Assembly (NCBI GenBank): GCA_017640785.1
Contig: JAEPPZ010000001.1
Span: 124,001 to 188,000, forward strand
Length of the DNA: 64,000 nucleotides
Reading direction: 5' to 3'
DNA from: Balneola sp.
GTDB lineage: Bacteria; Bacteroidota; Rhodothermia; Balneolales; Balneolaceae
Under the pieces are notes generated by a model. It was given only the letters and a program-made list of their open reading frames with translations. It searched no databases and was not told the DNA's origin. Each line of letters starts with the position of its first letter. The first letter of the stretch is position 1. This document shows positions 35,442 to 63,931 of this stretch, piece by piece. A program made the translations under genes and the position numbers.

Positions 35442-35484
35442 GTAATAATTCTTAGATCTTTTTTCCCGAAAGATGCTATGAAAA

Positions 35485-35692
35485 ATTTACGTATTGGCAG
35501 GTCTCCTGGCTTTCCTTGTGCAGCGCCTTCCCGATCCTATTGATCAGTGGCAAAGGTGAGGCTGCGGTTCCGGCTTTTGCCGAAAAGGATTACAGTTGCG
35601 GGAACAGCTTCCGATTTTGCTGAAGATTCAGAATCACGGAATTCCCTTTTAATTCGGAAACGAACTTGTTTCCAAAACCAACACCGTTAATT
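35485..35692 (-). ncRNA. Cobalamin (B12) riboswitch upstream of btuB
   Basis: On the minus strand the leader holds the B12 box AAGCCAGGAGACCTGCC (35496-35512) and the core GCCACTG (35545-35551), with paired flanking arms back to about 35692. These are the conserved elements of the AdoCbl riboswitch. Between it and the btuB start (35441) there is no strong U-tract terminator, so control is probably at translation initiation. High cobalamin should shut off the receptor and the BtuG-like gene. Confidence 0.92.
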
Positions 35693-35736
35693 TTTAAATT
35701 ACAAACAGATCAAATCACAAACAACCCCCTTGAATA

Positions 35737-35876
35737 AGGAATATGGAATATCCAATGTCCAATATCCAACATTCAATTTCCCTTTATCTGTATTTGTATC
35801 CTCAACCCTTTGGAAATTGGTTATTCCTTGTTGGTTATTGGATATTGAGTGTTGGATGTTGGTTGTTGGGTGTTGA
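35737..35876. repeat. Palindromic intergenic element built of CCAAYATCC-like units
   Basis: Left arm rich in CCAATGTCC and CCAATATCC, right arm rich in GGATATTG and GGATGTTGG; a perfect 8-bp core pair is CAATTTCC (35774-35781) with GGAAATTG (35812-35819). Open frames here (both strands) are products of the repeat. Related sequence appears at 60348-60444, 63537-63633 and, as a tandem expansion, at 45364-45454. The rest of the 570-base gap holds the riboswitch. Confidence 0.6.
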
Positions 35877-37067: not shown

Positions 37068-37430
37068 CTATTCTTGATCATAAATATATTTTCTTGTACT
37101 TACGATGTCTTTTGGACTAACAGAAAATGCTCCGTACCCTTTTTGCCATTTAAAAAACCCTTCTTCATAAAAATTATCGTTAATCCATTTAGATGATCTA
37201 CCTTTTATCCAATTTACGATCTCAGAAATATTTTGGGTTGTTTTCAATCTAAGTAATACATGTACATGATCTTCCATCCCATTTACAGTGTCGATCATTA
37301 TTCCATTTCTGTCAGCTTCATGTTTTATAAACTTGTTTAGCCTGCCTCGAAATGATTTTTTAATTAACGGTAATCTGTCTTTGGAACTCCAAACCAAATG
37401 AACCCAAACACTGGATAAATTATCTGACAT
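37068..37430 (-). CDS. Y1 HUH transposase (IS200/IS605-like or RAYT), cut by an in-frame TAG
   Basis: 120 residues with the Y1 transposase features: the HUH motif in DHVHVLLRL (about 69-77), GYGAFSVSP, and the catalytic Tyr in RKYIYDQE near the end. These enzymes nick single-stranded DNA at hairpins. The frame stops at TAG (37068-37070) immediately after QE, but the same frame continues for 16 sense codons, reading HHSKQSYYQEIKFF, to a TAA at 37020, and these residues match the family's usual C-terminus (QEEHH-K-S). A Glu codon has thus become TAG. It lies in a repeat array whose units have hairpins, so it is probably their cognate transposase. Confidence 0.85.
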   Translation of the reverse strand: MSDNLSSVWVHLVWSSKDRLPLIKKSFRGRLNKFIKHEADRNGIMIDTVNGMEDHVHVLLRLKTTQNISEIVNWIKGRSSKWINDNFYEEGFFKWQKGYGAFSVSPKDIVSTRKYIYDQE

Positions 37431-37500: not shown

Positions 37501-37857
37501 CAACCAAACCGGGCGTGAACGCCCTCCTAGTTTAAGCCACTTAGATTTGAATCAAGACAATTTAAACTAGCAGACCCTTCAGGTTCTGCGGATTCCGTTC
37601 AGGATTCCAAACTAGTATTACTATCTAAACACCAACACGGGCGTAAACGCCCTCCTAGTTTAAACCTCTTCGACTTAGACCACGACAATTTAAACAAGCA
37701 GATCCTTCAGGTTCTGCGGATTCGGTTCAGGACTCCAAGCTACTACTACTATCTAAACACCAACACGGGCGTAAACGCCCTCCTAGTTTAAACCTCTTTG
37801 ATTTTGATCATGGCAACTTAAACTAGCAGATCCTTCAGGTTCTGCGGATTCGGTTCA
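37501..37857 (+). repeat. 128-bp-period repeat array, units R3, R4 and R5
   Basis: Three direct units with the GGGCGTRAACGCCC core at 37510, 37639 and 37767 (spacings 129 and 128 bases). R4 (37627-37754) and R5 (37755-about 37857) are near-identical to R1 in the upstream part. All five units point the same way. The surrounding gap (37431-37956) otherwise contains only a terminator hairpin before the efflux operon. Confidence 0.88.
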
Positions 37858-42329: not shown

Positions 42330-45300
42330 ATGAGTATGACCGAGATCTCCATAAAAAGACCGGTAACAACCATGATGGTTTTTGTGAGCCTTGTGGTTGT
42401 CGGATTTATTGCTACTCGTTTGGTTCCTCTGGAGTATTTCCCGGACATTTCATTTCCCGGTGCCTCGATTCAGATCCCTTATCCTAATTCTTCTCCAAAT
42501 GAAATTGAAGAACAGGTTATCCGGCCTATTGAAGAGGTACTCGCAACAATAAGTGGCGTTGATCAGATCAATTCCAATGCAGGTGAGAATGAAGGTGGAA
42601 TTAGAATTCAATTTGTTCAAGGAAGTGATATTGATCTTAAAGCTATCGAGATCAAAGAAAAAATAGAAAGTGTTCGTAACCAACTGCCTGACGATTTTGA
42701 ATATTACCAGATCTTCAAATTTCAAGATGGTGGCGGTAATATGCTTCAATTACGTATTTCCAGTGAGCGCGATCTTTCGAATGCCTATGATCTTTTAGAC
42801 CGAAATCTGAAACAACGAATTGAGCGTATTGATGGGGTTGGTCAGGTTACTCTTTATGGTGTGGAAAAGAAAGAGATTAGAATTGAATTACTTGCCAACC
42901 GGCTCCAGAATTATAACATAGATCTGAATGATCTGAATCAACGTTTGAGCAGAGCTAACTTCTCGATCTCAGCGGGTAAGATCAACGATGCTGGATTAAG
43001 ATACAATGTTCGCCCAATGGGAGAATTAACTGAAGTTGAAGATTTTGAAAACCTTGTGATAGGAGAAAACAATCTTCGCTTAAAAGATATCGCAACCGTC
43101 GCATACACCTCTCCTGTTAGAAATTACGCCAGACATTTAGACCGAAAATATGCAATCGGTTTGGACATCGTTAAAGAGTCATCTGCTAATACCGTTGCAA
43201 CAGCTGATCGGGTTCTGAAAGAAATTGAAGAGATCAATGAACTTCCGGAAATGCAGGGGATTCAGATCTATGAAATGGATAATCAAGCCGACGGCATCCT
43301 GAGTTCTTTAGAAGAATTAATGAATGCCGGTGTTTTAGGTGCCGGACTTTCTGTAATCATGCTGTTCTTCTTTCTACGTCAGTTTGGAACTACTTTAATT
43401 GTAGCTACGGCTGTTCCTTTCTCATTAGTAGTAACATTAGGCTTTTTCTACTTCTTAAATATCTCCATCAATATTTTATCGATGACCGGTTTGATACTTG
43501 CCATTGGTATGCTGGTGGATAATGCCGTTGTGGTCACCGAGAACATACACCGGCATCGAAGAAACGGCATGGAACCGTCCAAAGCGGCAGTTCTTGGAGC
43601 AAAAGAGGTAGGAATTGCGGTAACTGCAGGTACATTTACTTCCGTGGTTGTTTTCCTTCCAAATATTATGAACGAAAGTTTTATCGCTCCATACATGTTT
43701 TACATTGGAATGCCGATCATTATTTCATTGATCGCTTCCCTGCTTATCTCACTTACGGTGATACCACTACTTACTTCAAAATTTAAACCCAGATCAAAAC
43801 AAGTAAAACGAACTATTATTGACAAACTTTCGGATAAATATTCTGCGTTCTTAGCTTGGTTCATTGAACGTAGATGGGTCTCCACCATCAGTATAGTTTT
43901 ACTCTTCTTTAGTATAGTAATTCCGATTTTACTTGGTATGAATATCGATATGTTTCCCAATAATCCTGAAAGAGAATTACAGCTCAGATACAATCTGAAT
44001 GGTTCTTACACTTTGGATCGTGTAAAGGAAACCGTAGACAAGGTTGAAGATTATTTGTATGAAAATATGGAAAAATTTGAGATCGAATCTGTTTATACAT
44101 ATTACCAACCGGAATATGCCCAGTCCACGATCATTTTGGTGGATGAAGAAGACGCTGAAAAATCTGTCGAGTTCATCAAAGAAGAGATCGAAAAAGACTT
44201 GCCGGTGGTAACCATTGGAGAGCCTGCTTTTGAATTCAGAAGCAGAAATAACAGCGAATCTATTCGGGTGTATGTTCAGGGTGAGTCCATGGATGTACTT
44301 ACAGAATTAGCCGATCAGGTTGAATGGAGAATTTCACAGGTTGAGGGATTTACTGATGTGAAATCGGATGCAGAACGTGGCAGAGATGAAATCCGTTTAA
44401 CCATCGACTCTGAAAAAGCTAAAACATACGGTTTAAGTTCACAAGCTGTGGCCAGATCAGTTTCAAATGCTGTACGTGGACAAAATCTGCGCAAAGTAAG
44501 AAGTGCTAATTCAGAAATTGACGTAATTCTCGCTCTTCAAAATGTAGACAAACAGTCTGTTGAGGATCTTAAAAATCTTCCAATATCTATTGAAGGTGAC
44601 CGAACAACTTCCCTCTCCACTCTTGCCAGTTTTGAACAAGCTTCCGGTCCGGGAAGGATATTCCGTCAGGATCGTAAAACTTCAATGGGAATTGCAGTTA
44701 ACCTAGAAGAAGGCATGACACCCGACGACGCCCGAAAAGAGCTTCGTGCTATCATGGATCAAATTGTATATCCTGCAGGTTACTCCTGGAGTTATGGCCG
44801 CAGTTTCAGTAACGACGATGAAGCCATGGGAACGATGTTGTTCAATATCGGAATTGCTTTCTTCCTGATCTATTTGGTGATGGCTTCCTTGTTTGAATCA
44901 TTGATGTATCCTACCGCCGTTCTTGCTTGTATACTGTACGGAATTGTTGGAATTTTCTGGTTCTTCTTTTTTACCGGAACCACTTTTGATCTTATGGCGA
45001 TGATCGGAATTCTTATACTGATGGGAATTGTCGTTAACAACGGTATCGTTCTCATCGATCATATCATTCATTTGAGAGAAGAAGGAATGAGTCGTGCCGA
45101 AGCTGTGGTACAAGGTGGAAAAGACCGAATGCGTCCTATTTTAATGACTGCAGGAACAACGGTTCTTGGATTGATTCCACTTTGTATCGGAACTACTCAA
45201 ATTGGTGGCGACGGACCTCCCTACTTCCCGATGGCAAGAGCTATTGTTGGTGGATTGATCTTCTCAACAGTTGTTACTCTGATCGTGCTTCCATCCATTT

Positions 45301-45362
45301 ATATCATCCTGGACGATTTCAAACTCTGGGCCGGAAGAATTGGAGCGAAAGCAAAAGGATAA
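42330..45362 (+). CDS. RND efflux permease 2 (MdtC-like)
   Basis: 1010 residues, complete RND permease: SITEI-type N-terminus, porter loops, TM4 GMLVDNAVVVTENIHRHR (about 391-408), and GIVVNNGIVLIDHII near 895-910. Tandem permeases with one adaptor, as in mdtABC, usually form a mixed trimer, and the immediate juxtaposition suggests equal expression. Substrate is unknown. The ATG is one base after the previous stop. A heptamer tandem repeat starts one base after its own stop. Confidence 0.92.
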   Translation: MSMTEISIKRPVTTMMVFVSLVVVGFIATRLVPLEYFPDISFPGASIQIPYPNSSPNEIEEQVIRPIEEVLATISGVDQINSNAGENEGGIRIQFVQGSDIDLKAIEIKEKIESVRNQLPDDFEYYQIFKFQDGGGNMLQLRISSERDLSNAYDLLDRNLKQRIERIDGVGQVTLYGVEKKEIRIELLANRLQNYNIDLNDLNQRLSRANFSISAGKINDAGLRYNVRPMGELTEVEDFENLVIGENNLRLKDIATVAYTSPVRNYARHLDRKYAIGLDIVKESSANTVATADRVLKEIEEINELPEMQGIQIYEMDNQADGILSSLEELMNAGVLGAGLSVIMLFFFLRQFGTTLIVATAVPFSLVVTLGFFYFLNISINILSMTGLILAIGMLVDNAVVVTENIHRHRRNGMEPSKAAVLGAKEVGIAVTAGTFTSVVVFLPNIMNESFIAPYMFYIGMPIIISLIASLLISLTVIPLLTSKFKPRSKQVKRTIIDKLSDKYSAFLAWFIERRWVSTISIVLLFFSIVIPILLGMNIDMFPNNPERELQLRYNLNGSYTLDRVKETVDKVEDYLYENMEKFEIESVYTYYQPEYAQSTIILVDEEDAEKSVEFIKEEIEKDLPVVTIGEPAFEFRSRNNSESIRVYVQGESMDVLTELADQVEWRISQVEGFTDVKSDAERGRDEIRLTIDSEKAKTYGLSSQAVARSVSNAVRGQNLRKVRSANSEIDVILALQNVDKQSVEDLKNLPISIEGDRTTSLSTLASFEQASGPGRIFRQDRKTSMGIAVNLEEGMTPDDARKELRAIMDQIVYPAGYSWSYGRSFSNDDEAMGTMLFNIGIAFFLIYLVMASLFESLMYPTAVLACILYGIVGIFWFFFFTGTTFDLMAMIGILILMGIVVNNGIVLIDHIIHLREEGMSRAEAVVQGGKDRMRPILMTAGTTVLGLIPLCIGTTQIGGDGPPYFPMARAIVGGLIFSTVVTLIVLPSIYIILDDFKLWAGRIGAKAKG

Positions 45363-45363
45363 G

Positions 45364-45454
45364 AACATCCAACATCCAACATCCAACATCCAACATCCAA
45401 CATCCAACATCCAACATCCAACATCCAACATCCAACATCCAACATCCAACATCC
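45364..45454 (+). repeat. Thirteen tandem copies of the heptamer AACATCC
   Basis: Exactly 91 bases, 13 identical 7-bp units, starting one base after the permease stop codon (45360-45362). It belongs to short tandemly repeated repetitive sequences. Frames through it give meaningless repeated peptides, which I do not count as genes. A different heptamer occurs 12 times at 46284-46367 on the other side of the toxin-antitoxin module. Confidence 0.97.
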
Positions 45455-45479
45455 AAATAGAAGTTTAGTACTTTGACCT

Positions 45480-45504
45480 CGTTCCCAAGCTCTGCTTGGG
45501 AACG
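45480..45504. repeat. Hairpin A: 11-bp perfect stem, CGTTCCCAAGC / GCTTGGGAACG
   Basis: Stem 45480-45490 with 45494-45504 and a TCT loop; the centre reads GCTCTGC. It lies 25 bases inside the heptamer repeat. Similar hairpins with CGTTCC/GGAACG arms occur at 46241-46265 and, with GGTTCC arms and the same GCTCTGC centre, at 60563-60587 and 63843-63867. Confidence 0.9.
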
Positions 45505-45647
45505 CCAGTCGGAAGCTCCTGTCCCCTCTTCATTTAAGTAACAACTCTTGTTAATTCACTTAATTTTAGCCCGACCTACCTTACATTGGTAACCACATTT
45601 CAATTCAGTATATTTATAGTACTTTAAAAAACTTTATATGTACTTTT

Positions 45648-45932
45648 ATGAATATTTCTCTTTCAAAAGATATCGAACCACTATCCGAATTTCGTAAAAA
45701 GTCTGCTGATTTTGTAAAACGACTGAAGAAAGACAAACAACCTATCGTCTTAACTCAACATGGCAAAAGTGCCGCTGTATTGATGGATGTCTCCGAATAC
45801 GAGCGCATTGCCGAAAGAATGGAAATGCTGGAAGATCTGCTGGAAGCAAAACAACAAGTTGAGCAAGGTAATACCTTTACCATTGACGAAGCTAAAGAAA
45901 GGATTGAAAAACATCTTTCTAAATGGAAGTAA
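45648..45932 (+). CDS. Phd/YefM-family antitoxin
   Basis: 94 residues. The N-terminal segment (MNISLSKDIEPLSEFRKKSADFVKRL) and ITQHGKSAAVLMDVSEYERI match the Phd/YefM DNA-binding and dimer fold; the C-terminal tail (about 65-94) would wrap the toxin. It represses its own operon and neutralises the downstream toxin. The upstream 60 bases contain repeated GTACTTT-like words that could be the operator. It overlaps the toxin gene by 10 bases (45923-45932). Confidence 0.88.
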   Translation: MNISLSKDIEPLSEFRKKSADFVKRLKKDKQPIVLTQHGKSAAVLMDVSEYERIAERMEMLEDLLEAKQQVEQGNTFTIDEAKERIEKHLSKWK

Positions 45933-46213
45933 TCTTTACCGATCGTTTTCTTACTCGGGTTGAGGAATGTACGGATTACATTGCTTTGGATCACATTCCG
46001 ACAGCTATAAAGTGGGCGGAAGAGATTTTCCATCATTGTGAACAACTAAGATCACAACCTGGTAGCGGCAGAATGGTACCTGAATTCAATCGTGATGAAA
46101 TCAAAGAGTTTATTCATGGAAATTACAGGCTGGTTTATGAAATAAAGCCTAACTGTATTTATATGCTAACGATCTGGCATACCAGTCAAATCTTACCCGA
46201 AAAGCCATATTGA
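45923..46213 (+). CDS. ParE/RelE-family toxin
   Basis: 96 residues of the RelE/ParE fold: an N-terminal helix pair, then GRMVPEF (about 49-55), the family core IKEFIHGNYRLVYEI (about 61-75) and the C-terminal IYMLTIWHTSQILP. ParE members poison gyrase and RelE members cleave mRNA; the sequence is closer to the ParE/YoeB-like group but the target is not settled. The start lies inside the antitoxin gene, so expression is coupled. A mirror hairpin follows 27 bases after the stop. Confidence 0.85.
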   Translation: MEVIFTDRFLTRVEECTDYIALDHIPTAIKWAEEIFHHCEQLRSQPGSGRMVPEFNRDEIKEFIHGNYRLVYEIKPNCIYMLTIWHTSQILPEKPY

Positions 46214-46240
46214 AACAGACGAAGCATAACCTCAGTACTG

Positions 46241-46265
46241 CGTTCCGAACGGGACGTTCGGAACG
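46241..46265. repeat. Hairpin B: 11-bp perfect stem, CGTTCCGAACG / CGTTCGGAACG
   Basis: Stem 46241-46251 with 46255-46265 and a GGA loop. It has the same length, stem and loop size as hairpin A, in the opposite sense, with the same outer CGTTCC. It lies 18 bases before the CTCACTC heptamer repeat. Confidence 0.9.
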
Positions 46266-46283
46266 AGATGTAAGCAGAGCCTC

Positions 46284-46367
46284 CTCACTCCTCACTCCTC
46301 ACTCCTCACTCCTCACTCCTCACTCCTCACTCCTCACTCCTCACTCCTCACTCCTCACTCCTCACTC
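46284..46367 (+). repeat. Twelve tandem copies of the heptamer CTCACTC
   Basis: 84 bases, 12 identical 7-bp units. Repeat on the distal side of the toxin-antitoxin module, mirroring the AACATCC array at 45364-45454 in unit length, copy number and distance to its hairpin. It is not a CRISPR array: no spacers. Confidence 0.97.
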
Positions 46368-46415
46368 CAAAAAAAATTACATCATTTAATCATTTCAAAG
46401 TATTGGAATCAGCCG

Positions 46416-46786: not shown

Positions 46787-48520
46787 ATGAAGAATCAAAT
46801 CATAATTCATTCCACCGAGGATCAAGCTCGGATTGCGTTGCTCGAAGACGGAGAGCTCGCTCAATTATTCATCCAATCAGAAGAGAACCAGCGTACAGTT
46901 GGTAATATTCATGTAGCTAAAGTCCATAAAGTGATGAGCGGTATCAAAGCTGCTTTCATCGATATGGGAACTCCTAAAGACGCTTTCCTACACTTCTCTG
47001 ATGCAGGCGACCATTTAGACGAGTACATTGCTATGCTTAATGGCAAAAATGCTATTCCGAATCATGTAAAACCGGATCTGAAGAACAAAGAGAAGCTTGC
47101 TAATCATCAGAAACAAGCACTTGCCGGAAAGATCTTAAGAAACGGTCAGAAACTATTAGTTCAGATCGTTAAAGAACCGATTGGCTCCAAAGGACCAAGA
47201 ATTTCTACCGATATCACCATTGCAGGGCGTTTTTTAGTGTTGATCCCAATGGGTGATTACATCGCTGTTTCCAAGAAAATTTCTAATTACAAAGAGCGTC
47301 GTCGTTTAAAAAATGTTCTTGGTGATATGGTACCGGACGGTTTCGGTGTAATTGTAAGAACCGTTGCTCAGGGCCAGGACGAAAAAGCTATTGAAGATGA
47401 TCTTCGTGATGTTTTAAGAAAATGGGAAAAGATCTTAGACAAGCTTGAAACTGCTAAACCACCTTCTCTCCTGCACCGAGATCTGGACATGACAGAAAGC
47501 CTGATCCGCGATCTTTTTGCAAAGAACTACGAGCGCGTATTGGTTGATGACCCAAAAATGTATCGTCAGCTTAAATCTTATGTAGGTCAGATTGCTCCTG
47601 AGATGGCGCAAAACGTACATCAGTATAAAGGCAAAAAGCATATTTTCGACCAAATGGGAATTGCTGAGGATATCAACTCTATCTTCAATCCAAGAGTGAG
47701 AATGAAGTCGGGCGGTTACCTGATCTTTGAGCAGACAGAAGCGATGTATGTAGTGGATGTGAACTCCGGACCATATGCGGCTAAAGCAAGACAAGAAGAC
47801 AATTCTCTTAAAACCAATCTGGACGCTGCCAGAGAAATTGCTAAACAATTACGCCTGAGAGACATCGGTGGTATTATCGTGGTAGATTTCATTGATCTGA
47901 GAGATGAGAAGAATCGTAAGAAGATCTACGACGAACTAAAGAAAGAATTCCGAAAAGATCCTGCAAAAACCAATATGCTTGGAATGAGTGATTTCGGATT
48001 GGTTCAGATCACCAGACAGCGAATACGTCCAAGTGTGATCAACTCCGTGTCTAAAGTCTGCCCGATGTGTGGCGGAAGTGGTGATGTGATCAGCGATGAC
48101 ACGATCCTTACTGATATTGAAAGCTGGTTAAGTAAATTTAAGCATGCTTCTGAATATCGTGCAGTTGATCTGTATGTAAACCCGTACATGAAGACACTCA
48201 TCAACAAAGGAATGTTCAGCAAGCGTTGGAAATGGATGTCAAAATTGCACATCAAAATTACCTTAGTTGCTGATGAAAGCATTCCATTGAGCAGATTCAA
48301 GGTAACGCTATCCGGTTCTGACGTGGATATTACGGATGTAGTTATGCGTGGAGCTTCGATTGATGAAGCACTCCAACAGGTTGAATATGTTGAGGAAATA
48401 GATCGAGGTAAAGAAGACCTGGAGATCACAAAGAAAAGCAACCATCGAAACAGCGGAAACAGAACGTCAGGAAGTTCTGCCAATTCGAATGGAAATAAGA
48501 ACCATACCCATCAAAATTAG
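46787..48520 (+). CDS. rng: Ribonuclease G/E family endoribonuclease
   Basis: 577 residues from the ATG at 46787; an upstream TTG at 46754 adds 11 residues not seen in the family, so I reject it. S1 RNA-binding domain at about 38-130 (GNIHVAKVHKVMSGIKAAFIDMG), then the RNase E/G domain with VDVNSGPYAAKARQEDN and VVDFIDLRDEKNR, carrying the metal Asp residues, and a Zn-link motif CPMCGGSG. It cleaves AU-rich single-stranded RNA during rRNA maturation and mRNA decay. It ends in a terminator that overlaps its last codons. Confidence 0.93.
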   Translation: MKNQIIIHSTEDQARIALLEDGELAQLFIQSEENQRTVGNIHVAKVHKVMSGIKAAFIDMGTPKDAFLHFSDAGDHLDEYIAMLNGKNAIPNHVKPDLKNKEKLANHQKQALAGKILRNGQKLLVQIVKEPIGSKGPRISTDITIAGRFLVLIPMGDYIAVSKKISNYKERRRLKNVLGDMVPDGFGVIVRTVAQGQDEKAIEDDLRDVLRKWEKILDKLETAKPPSLLHRDLDMTESLIRDLFAKNYERVLVDDPKMYRQLKSYVGQIAPEMAQNVHQYKGKKHIFDQMGIAEDINSIFNPRVRMKSGGYLIFEQTEAMYVVDVNSGPYAAKARQEDNSLKTNLDAAREIAKQLRLRDIGGIIVVDFIDLRDEKNRKKIYDELKKEFRKDPAKTNMLGMSDFGLVQITRQRIRPSVINSVSKVCPMCGGSGDVISDDTILTDIESWLSKFKHASEYRAVDLYVNPYMKTLINKGMFSKRWKWMSKLHIKITLVADESIPLSRFKVTLSGSDVDITDVVMRGASIDEALQQVEYVEEIDRGKEDLEITKKSNHRNSGNRTSGSSANSNGNKNHTHQN

Positions 48521-60320: not shown

Positions 60321-60533
60321 GAGAGGACTCTCTTGAAATTAATTAACCCAATATCCAACGTTGAACAAGGAACACCCAACATCCAGTTACGAACATCACA
60401 TGAATGACAATGGACATTGGATGTTCAGTATTGGGTGTTGGTTTATTGCCTGCACGCCGGGCGTGAACGCCCTTCTAGCTTACATTTCGTTGCGTGATTT
60501 TAAACCAGCAGATCCTTCAGGTTCTGCGGTTTA
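60321..60533 (+). repeat. 213-bp intergenic repeat, copy 1
   Basis: Begins GAGAGGACTC, contains the CCAATATCC-type palindrome (60348-60444), the GGGCGTGAACGCCC core (60459) and the CAGATCCTTCAGG hairpin. It aligns without gaps to 63510-63722 with 7 mismatches (about 97% identity). The two copies bracket the PID-CTERM and T9SS genes. Frames across it are repeat-derived. Confidence 0.92.
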
Positions 60534-60554
60534 TTGTATTCGACAGTTCCAAAA

Positions 60555-60587
60555 CAAAAAAAGGTTCCGACGCAGAGCATCGGAACC
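60555..60587 (-). terminator. Terminator hairpin at the end of the PID-CTERM region
   Basis: GGTTCCGA (60563-60570) pairs with TCGGAACC (60580-60587) with GCTCTGC in the minus-strand loop, then seven T residues on the minus strand. It is the end of the minus-strand transcript from the PID-CTERM and T9SS genes, and a member of the hairpin family at 45480 and 63843. Confidence 0.8.
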
Positions 60588-60677
60588 AGATGTAAATCAG
60601 TGAATACCTGCCCTGCTAAAAAGTGGGCAGTGATTCGGAGATCACTTCGCTACGCTCGTGAATGAGCATGATCTTGT

Positions 60678-63509: not shown

Positions 63510-63722
63510 GAGAGGACTCTCTTGAAATTAATTAACCCAATATCCAACGTTGAACAAGGAACACCCAACATCCAGTTACGAACATCACATGAGCGACAAT
63601 GGACATTGGATGTTCAGTATTGGATGTTGATTTATTGCCTGCACGCCGGGCGTGAACGCCCTTCTAGCATACATTTCGTTGCATGATTTTAAACCAGCAG
63701 ATCCTTCAGGTTCTACGGTTTA
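63510..63722 (+). repeat. 213-bp intergenic repeat, copy 2
   Basis: Gapless counterpart of 60321-60533 with 7 differences. The GGGCGTGAACGCCC core is at 63648. It sits upstream of the T9SS gene, so together with copy 1 it brackets the gene pair at a distance of 3189 bases (start to start). Confidence 0.92.
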
Positions 63723-63737
63723 AGAATTGAATCGTAG

Positions 63738-63867
63738 TTTCCCTCCTTATCCAAGGAGGGGCGAGCTGCTCCGTACAGAAAATATGGTGATGAACCGGGG
63801 AGGTCCGAGCAACAATGAGCCGTAAAGCTTGAACAAAAAAAAGGTTCCGGTGCAGAGCATCGGAACC
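63738..63867 (-). terminator. Hairpins including the terminator of the hydroxyacyl-CoA dehydrogenase gene
   Basis: A CCTCCTT/AAGGAGG hairpin at about 63744-63761 is followed by GGTTCCGG (63843-63850) with TCGGAACC (63860-63867), with GCTCTGC in the minus-strand loop and eight T residues on the minus strand (63835-63842). The latter is a rho-independent terminator for the minus-strand gene ending at 63932. Confidence 0.75.
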
Positions 63868-63931
63868 AGATAAATAAATCACAACTACCATTCATCAGAC
63901 GGGGCATCTATCAGATCAATATTCTTTAAGT

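What the first reader, a model, noticed from the sequence alone, without database searches (positions are those of the whole stretch)
45364..46367. Mirrored repeat cassette around a Phd/ParE toxin-antitoxin module
From the outside in, both flanks have the same three parts: a heptamer tandem array (AACATCC x13; CTCACTC x12), a short spacer (25 and 18 bases), and an 11-bp perfect hairpin with a 3-base loop and CGTTCC arms (45480-45504; 46241-46265), the second inverted relative to the first. The two heptamers are different, so simple duplication cannot explain the symmetry. The toxin-antitoxin genes sit inside with no other gene. This looks like a mobile or exchangeable cassette whose ends are recognised by hairpin and/or repeat.
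Basis: partly seen in the sequence, partly recalled or inferred. Interest (0 to 1): 0.72.

Follow-up and report, generated by a model that had tools for sequence, protein, structure and literature searches.

The report
Stranded toxin-antitoxin integron cassette between REPs
A small toxin-antitoxin gene pair in a Balneola-type bacterium looks like a symmetrical mobile cassette, but comparison with relatives points to a former integron gene cassette that has lost its recombination sites and now sits between two ordinary dispersed hairpin repeats and two independently varying 7-base repeats.

Summary
All the described parts are real. Their symmetry comes from three unrelated layers.

(1) Heptamers belong to the chromosomal flanks. 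At the orthologous site copy number varies (AACATCC 13/6/7; CTCACTC 12/4/1/1/0). They remain where the TA module is absent (G004); the left array is missing where TA is present (G001, G002).

(2) Hairpins are REP elements of a RAYT family, truly inverted to each other. The own genome has at least 51 matches. The same REPs flank RAYT genes as inverted pairs (6 of 18 loci), and TA-less REP pairs exist.

(3) In relatives the Phd/ParE operon is an integron cassette: attC directly adjoins it in 8 of 16 GTDB loci. At the orthologous locus of G001 a decayed attC still follows parE. The window's genome has an integron integrase with 13 clustered attC, but no attC remains at this locus.

Best reading: an integron cassette stranded at a rearranging site upstream of RNase G, where REPs and deletions replaced its attC. 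The 'exchangeable cassette' idea is right about ancestry and unsupported about mechanism. A new member of a known kind.

The parts
42330..45362 (+). RND-family efflux permease gene: left flank, not part of the module
   Evidence: PF00873 2.6e-203; left neighbour also in G004 and G007
45364..45456 (+). AACATCC heptamer array, 13 full units; belongs to the 3' flank of the RND gene
   Evidence: TRF; orthologous array has 6 units in G004 and 7 in G007; G004 has no TA
45477..45538 (+). REP element, forward orientation (first hairpin 45480-45504; second hairpin truncated)
   Evidence: R2 model 71 bits; alignment A2; this copy was in the training set
45565..45572 (+). relic of the cassette's 5' border (TTTTAGCC, at the place of the attC R' box in relatives); no attC upstream of it
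   Evidence: multiple alignment with G043, G047 and G017; attC test negative
45618..45644 (+). AGTAC...GTACT inverted repeat just before phd, well conserved in relatives; putative promoter/operator (inferred)
   Evidence: alignment; function not tested
45648..45932 (+). Phd/YefM-type antitoxin gene, 94 aa
   Evidence: PF02604 2.7e-18; TIGR01552 1.3e-13
45923..46213 (+). ParE-type toxin gene, 96 aa, overlapping phd
   Evidence: PF05016 1.9e-14
46208..46268 (-). REP element, reverse orientation (hairpin 46241-46265); its inner end joins parE at the shared ATTGAAA
   Evidence: R2 model 31 bits, not in the training set; junction alignment
46281..46368 (+). CTCACTC heptamer array, 12 full units; belongs to the RNase G side
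   Evidence: TRF; 4 units in G002, 1 in G004 and G007, 0 in G001
46790..48520 (+). RNase E/G family gene: right flank, shared by all 8 genus members examined
   Evidence: PF10150 1.3e-100

Best explanation
The locus is a Phd/ParE type II toxin-antitoxin operon that entered the chromosome as an integron gene cassette and is now stranded. Its attC sites are gone. It lies inside an inverted pair of REP elements spread by RAYT transposases, and each chromosomal flank happens to carry a heptamer array. Mechanism: (a) [shown in relatives, inferred here] the operon with its own leader was once a cassette bounded by attC; (b) [inferred] the integrase, or rearrangement of a cassette array, placed it with other cassettes upstream of RNase G; (c) [seen by comparison] REP elements sit in and around the cassettes, and in G007 a REP pair splits the attC behind parE; (d) [seen as a junction; route inferred] in the window's lineage the sequence behind parE was lost across the shared heptamer ATTGAAA, joining parE to the inner end of a reverse REP; (e) [copy-number difference seen; slippage inferred] the two heptamer arrays grew and shrank independently. 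The TA pair itself probably works as an ordinary autoregulated toxin-antitoxin (family knowledge, not tested).
For: attC directly borders this TA on both sides in G043 (L096 1951-2075 and 2710-2834, E 6e-11 and 7e-11). It adjoins the TA on at least one side in 8 of 16 GTDB loci (L231, L232, L234, L235, L238, L239, L243, L244; best adjacent E 1.3e-8 to 0.0043). At the orthologous locus in G001, 62 of 79 columns behind parE match an attC (score 89; best of 300 shuffles 43). attC matches also occur at this locus in G002, G004 and G007. The own genome has an integron integrase (TIGR02249, 432 bits) with 13 attC on the same contig and 4 elsewhere. REPs: at least 51 in G000, 38, 53, 21 and 47 in G001-G004; 6 of 18 fetched Y1_Tnp loci are flanked on both sides by inverted copies, and these 6 plus one found through its REP pair (L219) score as RAYT (NF047646, 93-120 bits). 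Complete REP pairs without TA: G004 C3, C6, C44 and G002 C3. Heptamer copy numbers.
Against: No attC is detectable at the window locus itself: behind parE 117 of 300 shuffles score as high, before phd 150 of 300, and the best R1 hit in the window lies elsewhere at E 0.91. So cassette ancestry here rests on relatives. The weak matches behind parE in G007 (5 of 300 shuffles as high) and the R1 hits in G001 (E 0.007-0.008) are marginal taken alone. G000 and G002 share the parE-REP junction although RNase G identity (G001, G004, G007 99%, G002 97%) places G002 outside, so the order of events is not resolved and gene exchange is possible. In 8 of 16 GTDB loci no adjacent attC was found (R1 is trained on this family, so divergent attC may be missed). 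REP flanking was absent at 9 of the 18 Y1_Tnp loci and one-sided at 3.
Confidence: 0.8

Rival explanations
1. A REP-bounded composite mobile element: RAYT acting on the two inverted REPs moves the TA operon as a unit, as a REPIN that has taken up cargo.
For: Geometry REP-> genes <-REP with 792 bases between outer ends resembles REP-> RAYT <-REP units (679-718 bases, computed coordinates). RAYT genes and REPs coexist in the genome. The REPIN paper speculates that REPINs could take up beneficial DNA (PMC3116915, passages seen).
Against: Only one close ParE copy exists in the own genome, the other three matches being 31-36% identical. In G001 the TA carries the left REP but is followed by attC remains, not by a REP. 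In G007 the REP pair lies behind the TA, not around it. No second TA copy bounded by these REPs was seen; REP matches in G043, G047 and G017 loci were not beside the TA.
Confidence: 0.07
2. One reading: ends defined by heptamer plus hairpin, exchanged as a block.
For: Symmetric order array-hairpin-genes-hairpin-array in this one genome.
Against: Arrays vary separately and stay without the TA in G004; left array absent in G001 and G002 with the TA present. Element loci outside this locus carried a period-7 array in 1 of 24 cases. The two other perfect arrays found in the 400-kb sample (L213, L214) have no significant REP nearby: none in L213, and in L214 only a marginal match (E 0.06) 282 bases away.
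Confidence: 0.02
3. Plain vertical TA locus: the operon was an ordinary chromosomal TA here, unrelated to integrons, and integron copies in relatives were captured from such loci.
For: The window locus shows no attC; 8 of 16 GTDB loci lack an adjacent attC match.
Against: A decayed attC directly behind parE at the orthologous locus in G001 and an attC before it in G002. The TA is absent from RNase G's left side in G003-G006; G003 has it at another locus.
Confidence: 0.1

Closest known systems
Toxin-antitoxin gene cassettes of sedentary chromosomal integrons (e.g. the 19 TA cassettes of the Vibrio cholerae superintegron; PMC11023631, passages seen)
   Same: TA operon with its own leader, attC behind the toxin in relatives, integrase in the same genome
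   Different: At this locus the attC are lost and the operon lies on another contig than the detected integrase (C10 versus C18)
REP/REPIN and BIME elements with RAYT transposases (PMC2817692, PMC3116915; passages seen)
   Same: Dispersed palindromes, inverted pairs, inverted REPs flanking RAYT genes
   Different: Here a TA operon, not RAYT or a short linker, lies between the inverted REPs
Intergenic heptamer repeats of bacteria (e.g. TAACTGA arrays; PMC4679880, passages seen)
   Same: Perfect 7-base tandem arrays between genes, variable in copy number
   Different: Other units (AACATCC, CTCACTC); no position just before start codons
Cassette insertion at non-classical attG sites (Loot et al. 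2024; only its reference entry was seen; content recalled)
   Same: Would explain cassettes outside the integron
   Different: No attG junction could be identified here

Membership tests
Integron gene cassette | attC site at the end of the cassette | tested here: not met
   Window: no attC on either side. Met in G043 and 8 of 16 GTDB loci; decayed in G001
Integron gene cassette | integron integrase in the genome | tested here: met
   G000 C18:74583-75524, TIGR02249 432 bits, open frame
Integron gene cassette | recombination by IntI | not testable with these tools
   Needs an excision/integration assay
Type II toxin-antitoxin, Phd-ParE | adjacent small antitoxin and toxin genes of these families | tested here: met
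   PF02604 and PF05016 above cut-off, overlapping genes
Type II toxin-antitoxin, Phd-ParE | toxicity neutralised by the antitoxin | not tested
   Bench test
REP elements of a RAYT | dispersed extragenic palindromes in many copies | tested here: met
   51 matches in G000; only 150 of 1271 candidates were scored, so a lower bound. Classic REPs often exceed 100 copies (PMC2817692 abstract)
REP elements of a RAYT | same palindrome in inverted pair around a RAYT gene | tested here: met
   6 of 18 fetched Y1_Tnp loci by motif scan, plus L219; all 7 are NF047646 above cut-off
REP elements of a RAYT | paired structure kept by compensatory change | tested here: met
   A2: 25 cells changed on both sides versus 12.5 +/- 2.4 shuffled, 0 of 500 shuffles; but pairs with such change 4 versus 4.2 and further pair types 12 versus 11.6 are not above shuffles
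REP elements of a RAYT | tag tetranucleotide at one end | not tested
   Known from PMC3733652 (listing and abstract start only)
Mobile cassette with heptamer/hairpin ends | same ends around other cargo and precise empty site | tested here: not met
   Flank arrays vary independently; 1 of 24 other element loci held a period-7 array

The most novel reading that the evidence does not exclude
Inverted REPs have captured an addiction module: a TA operon inherited from an integron has become cargo of a REP pair, giving a REPIN-like element that RAYT could move and the TA could keep from being lost, so that two different single-strand hairpin recombination systems (IntI/attC and RAYT/REP) have handed over the same cargo.
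Probability: 0.06. Interest if true: 0.7.

Novelty: new member of a known kind. Interest (0 to 1): 0.36.

Why it matters
It shows how a striking symmetric 'cassette' can be assembled from unrelated repeats. It also gives a case where a toxin-antitoxin integron cassette appears to outlive its attC sites in a chromosomal neighbourhood, documented by intermediate states in close relatives. The intergene upstream of RNase G in this genus is a natural series for studying how cassettes decay and how REP elements meet attC sites. No paper on integrons in this group was found with the terms Balneola+integron+attC or Balneolaceae+integron in the held library.

Tried and rejected
Plain duplication or inverted duplication of the flanks: rejected, because the heptamers differ in sequence and both read on the + strand.

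A described RNA family at the locus: the Rfam scan of the window gave only a cobalamin riboswitch at 35479-35697.

REP elements preferring attC as a target: three copies abut an attC cut at about the same place (G002 C10, G004 C63, G001 C40; seen by eye). A pattern for that junction was found in only 2 of 92 family genomes, with 0 in the reversed control; not pursued.

CGTTCC-arm hairpins by exact pattern: only 5 places in the own genome, and the reversed control also gave 1 place. The exact pattern badly undercounts REPs, which is why a covariance model was built.

Own proteins of the neighbouring insertions: 9 tested; one is a PD40 beta-propeller protein, the other 8 have no Pfam match above cut-off.

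No structure prediction was made; the families are clear from sequence.

Full report
Observation. The sequence features are present at the given coordinates. AACATCC x13.3 is at 45364-45456 and the CTCACTC array x12.6 at 46281-46368. The two perfect 11-bp hairpins are at 45480-45504 and 46241-46265, the only such CGTTCC pairs in the window (0.02 expected). Between them lie phd (45648-45932) and parE (45923-46213). Perfect arrays of at least three units are rare in this genome, and those of 7 bases dominate: in 400 kb of sampled sequence plus the window there were 4 of period 7 (two of them in this locus), 1 of period 6 and none of periods 5 and 8-12; 10 shuffles gave none of period 7.

The heptamers are flank features. 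The RND gene and its AACATCC array are also present in G004 (6 units) and G007 (7 units); G001 and G002 have other left neighbours and no such array. On the RNase G side CTCACTC has 12 units in the window, 4 in G002, 1 in G004 and G007, and 0 in G001. G004 keeps both flanks and has no ParE match anywhere in its genome at E <= 0.001. Copy number thus varies independently of the TA. Heptamer repeats as the commonest class of short tandem repeat, with a slippage explanation, are described in the introduction of PMC4679880 (passages).

The hairpins are REPs. A 121-base stretch of G004 holding both hairpins matched 6 places in the own genome, 10 in G001, 8 in G002, 8 in G004, 3 in G003, and 0 in G005 and in three outgroup genomes. 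Complete two-hairpin copies occur at G004 C3, C6 and C44 and at G002 C3. I fetched 18 loci with Y1_Tnp matches that did not look like IS200. By motif scan, 6 are flanked on both sides by inverted copies of the same element, 3 have it on one side only, and 9 have none; some of the 9 carry other palindromes. Those 6 ORFs and the one in L219 score as REP-associated tyrosine transposase (NF047646, all above cut-off). A model from 26 copies (A2, including copies from these RAYT loci and the window's left copy) found 51, 38, 53, 21 and 47 matches in G000-G004 and none in G005, G023 and G024; only 150 candidates per genome were scored. It matches the window's left hairpin on + and the right one on -. 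Covariation in A2 is partly above shuffles (cells changed on both sides 25 versus 12.5; score 0.208 versus 0.120) and partly not (pairs with change 4 versus 4.2). Inverted REPs around RAYT genes, and REP pairs as the mobile unit, are as described in PMC2817692 and PMC3116915 (passages).

The TA operon is an integron cassette in relatives. The own genome has an integron integrase (C18:74583-75524; 432 bits). A model of the family's attC (26 sites, 11 of them from this genome) finds 17 attC in it, 13 on C18 at 60-73 kb and 4 isolated on C1, C11, C13 and C16. In G043 the TA lies exactly between two attC. Of 16 GTDB loci with a close ParE (several are the same genomes as G001, G002, G003, G007, G017, G047 and G048), 8 have attC adjoining the TA. 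L239 is labelled a cyanobacterium but is a small low-coverage contig and may be contamination (inference). In the window no attC is found on either side.

The orthologous locus shows intermediate states. In G001 the TA has the left REP and is followed by attC remains: 62 of 79 columns identical, score 89 against a shuffle maximum of 43. In G007 a REP pair and further repeats lie between the end of parE and an attC right half, and the toxin gene has an in-frame TGA. In G002 an attC left part runs into the left REP, then TA, then the right REP. In G004 the TA is absent and the two REPs are adjacent. In the window parE runs into the inner end of the right REP at the shared ATTGAAA. G002 shares this junction although its RNase G is more distant (97% against 99%), so the order of losses is unresolved. 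The left neighbour of RNase G also varies: RND permease in G000, G004 and G007; a chorismate mutase/prephenate dehydrogenase gene in G001; a 356-aa protein without a Pfam match above cut-off in G002; an EPSP-synthase-family gene (by length and sequence MurA-like; the name is my recognition) in G005 and, by eye, in G003 and G006.

Interpretation. The most economical account is a stranded integron cassette, REP-invaded and trimmed, between two flanks that happen to carry heptamer arrays. How it came to this site is not shown; insertion at a non-classical site or rearrangement of an array are both possible.

Most novel reading not excluded: the inverted REP pair now carries the TA as cargo (probability 0.06). 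The single close copy, the G001 and G007 arrangements and the absence of a second REP-bounded TA speak against it.

Noticed in passing
window 35747-35875: Degenerate heptamer arrays in inverted orientation (AATATCC then GGATATT-like) beside a cobalamin riboswitch at 35479-35697; similar inverted heptamer pairs at 60350-60445 and 63540-63630.
   Followed up: no
window 60527-60590 and 63830-63870: Further REP matches on the - strand (25 and 20 bits), near a duplicated intergenic block.
   Followed up: no
window 37503-37857: 128-bp tandem repeat, 2.8 copies, just beside an IS200-type transposase gene at 37074-37415 on the - strand.
   Followed up: no
G000 C1:653, C11:18574, C13:97581, C16:238036: Four isolated attC matches away from the integron contig: possible further stranded cassettes.
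   Followed up: no
L145 (G002 C10), L154 (G004 C63), L153 (G001 C40): REP copies abut an attC truncated at about the same position; the junction pattern was found in 2 of 92 family genomes.
   Followed up: partly
L219 (G000 C10:106500-111800): A RAYT gene between inverted REPs lies directly beside a second, distant Phd/ParE pair.
   Followed up: partly
L182, L191, L195, L196, L198: Other Y1_Tnp-matching genes lie near different palindromes, suggesting more than one RAYT/REP family in the genus.
   Followed up: no
G007 C14:147125-147412: The orthologous parE carries an in-frame TGA, so the toxin looks inactivated there.
   Followed up: no
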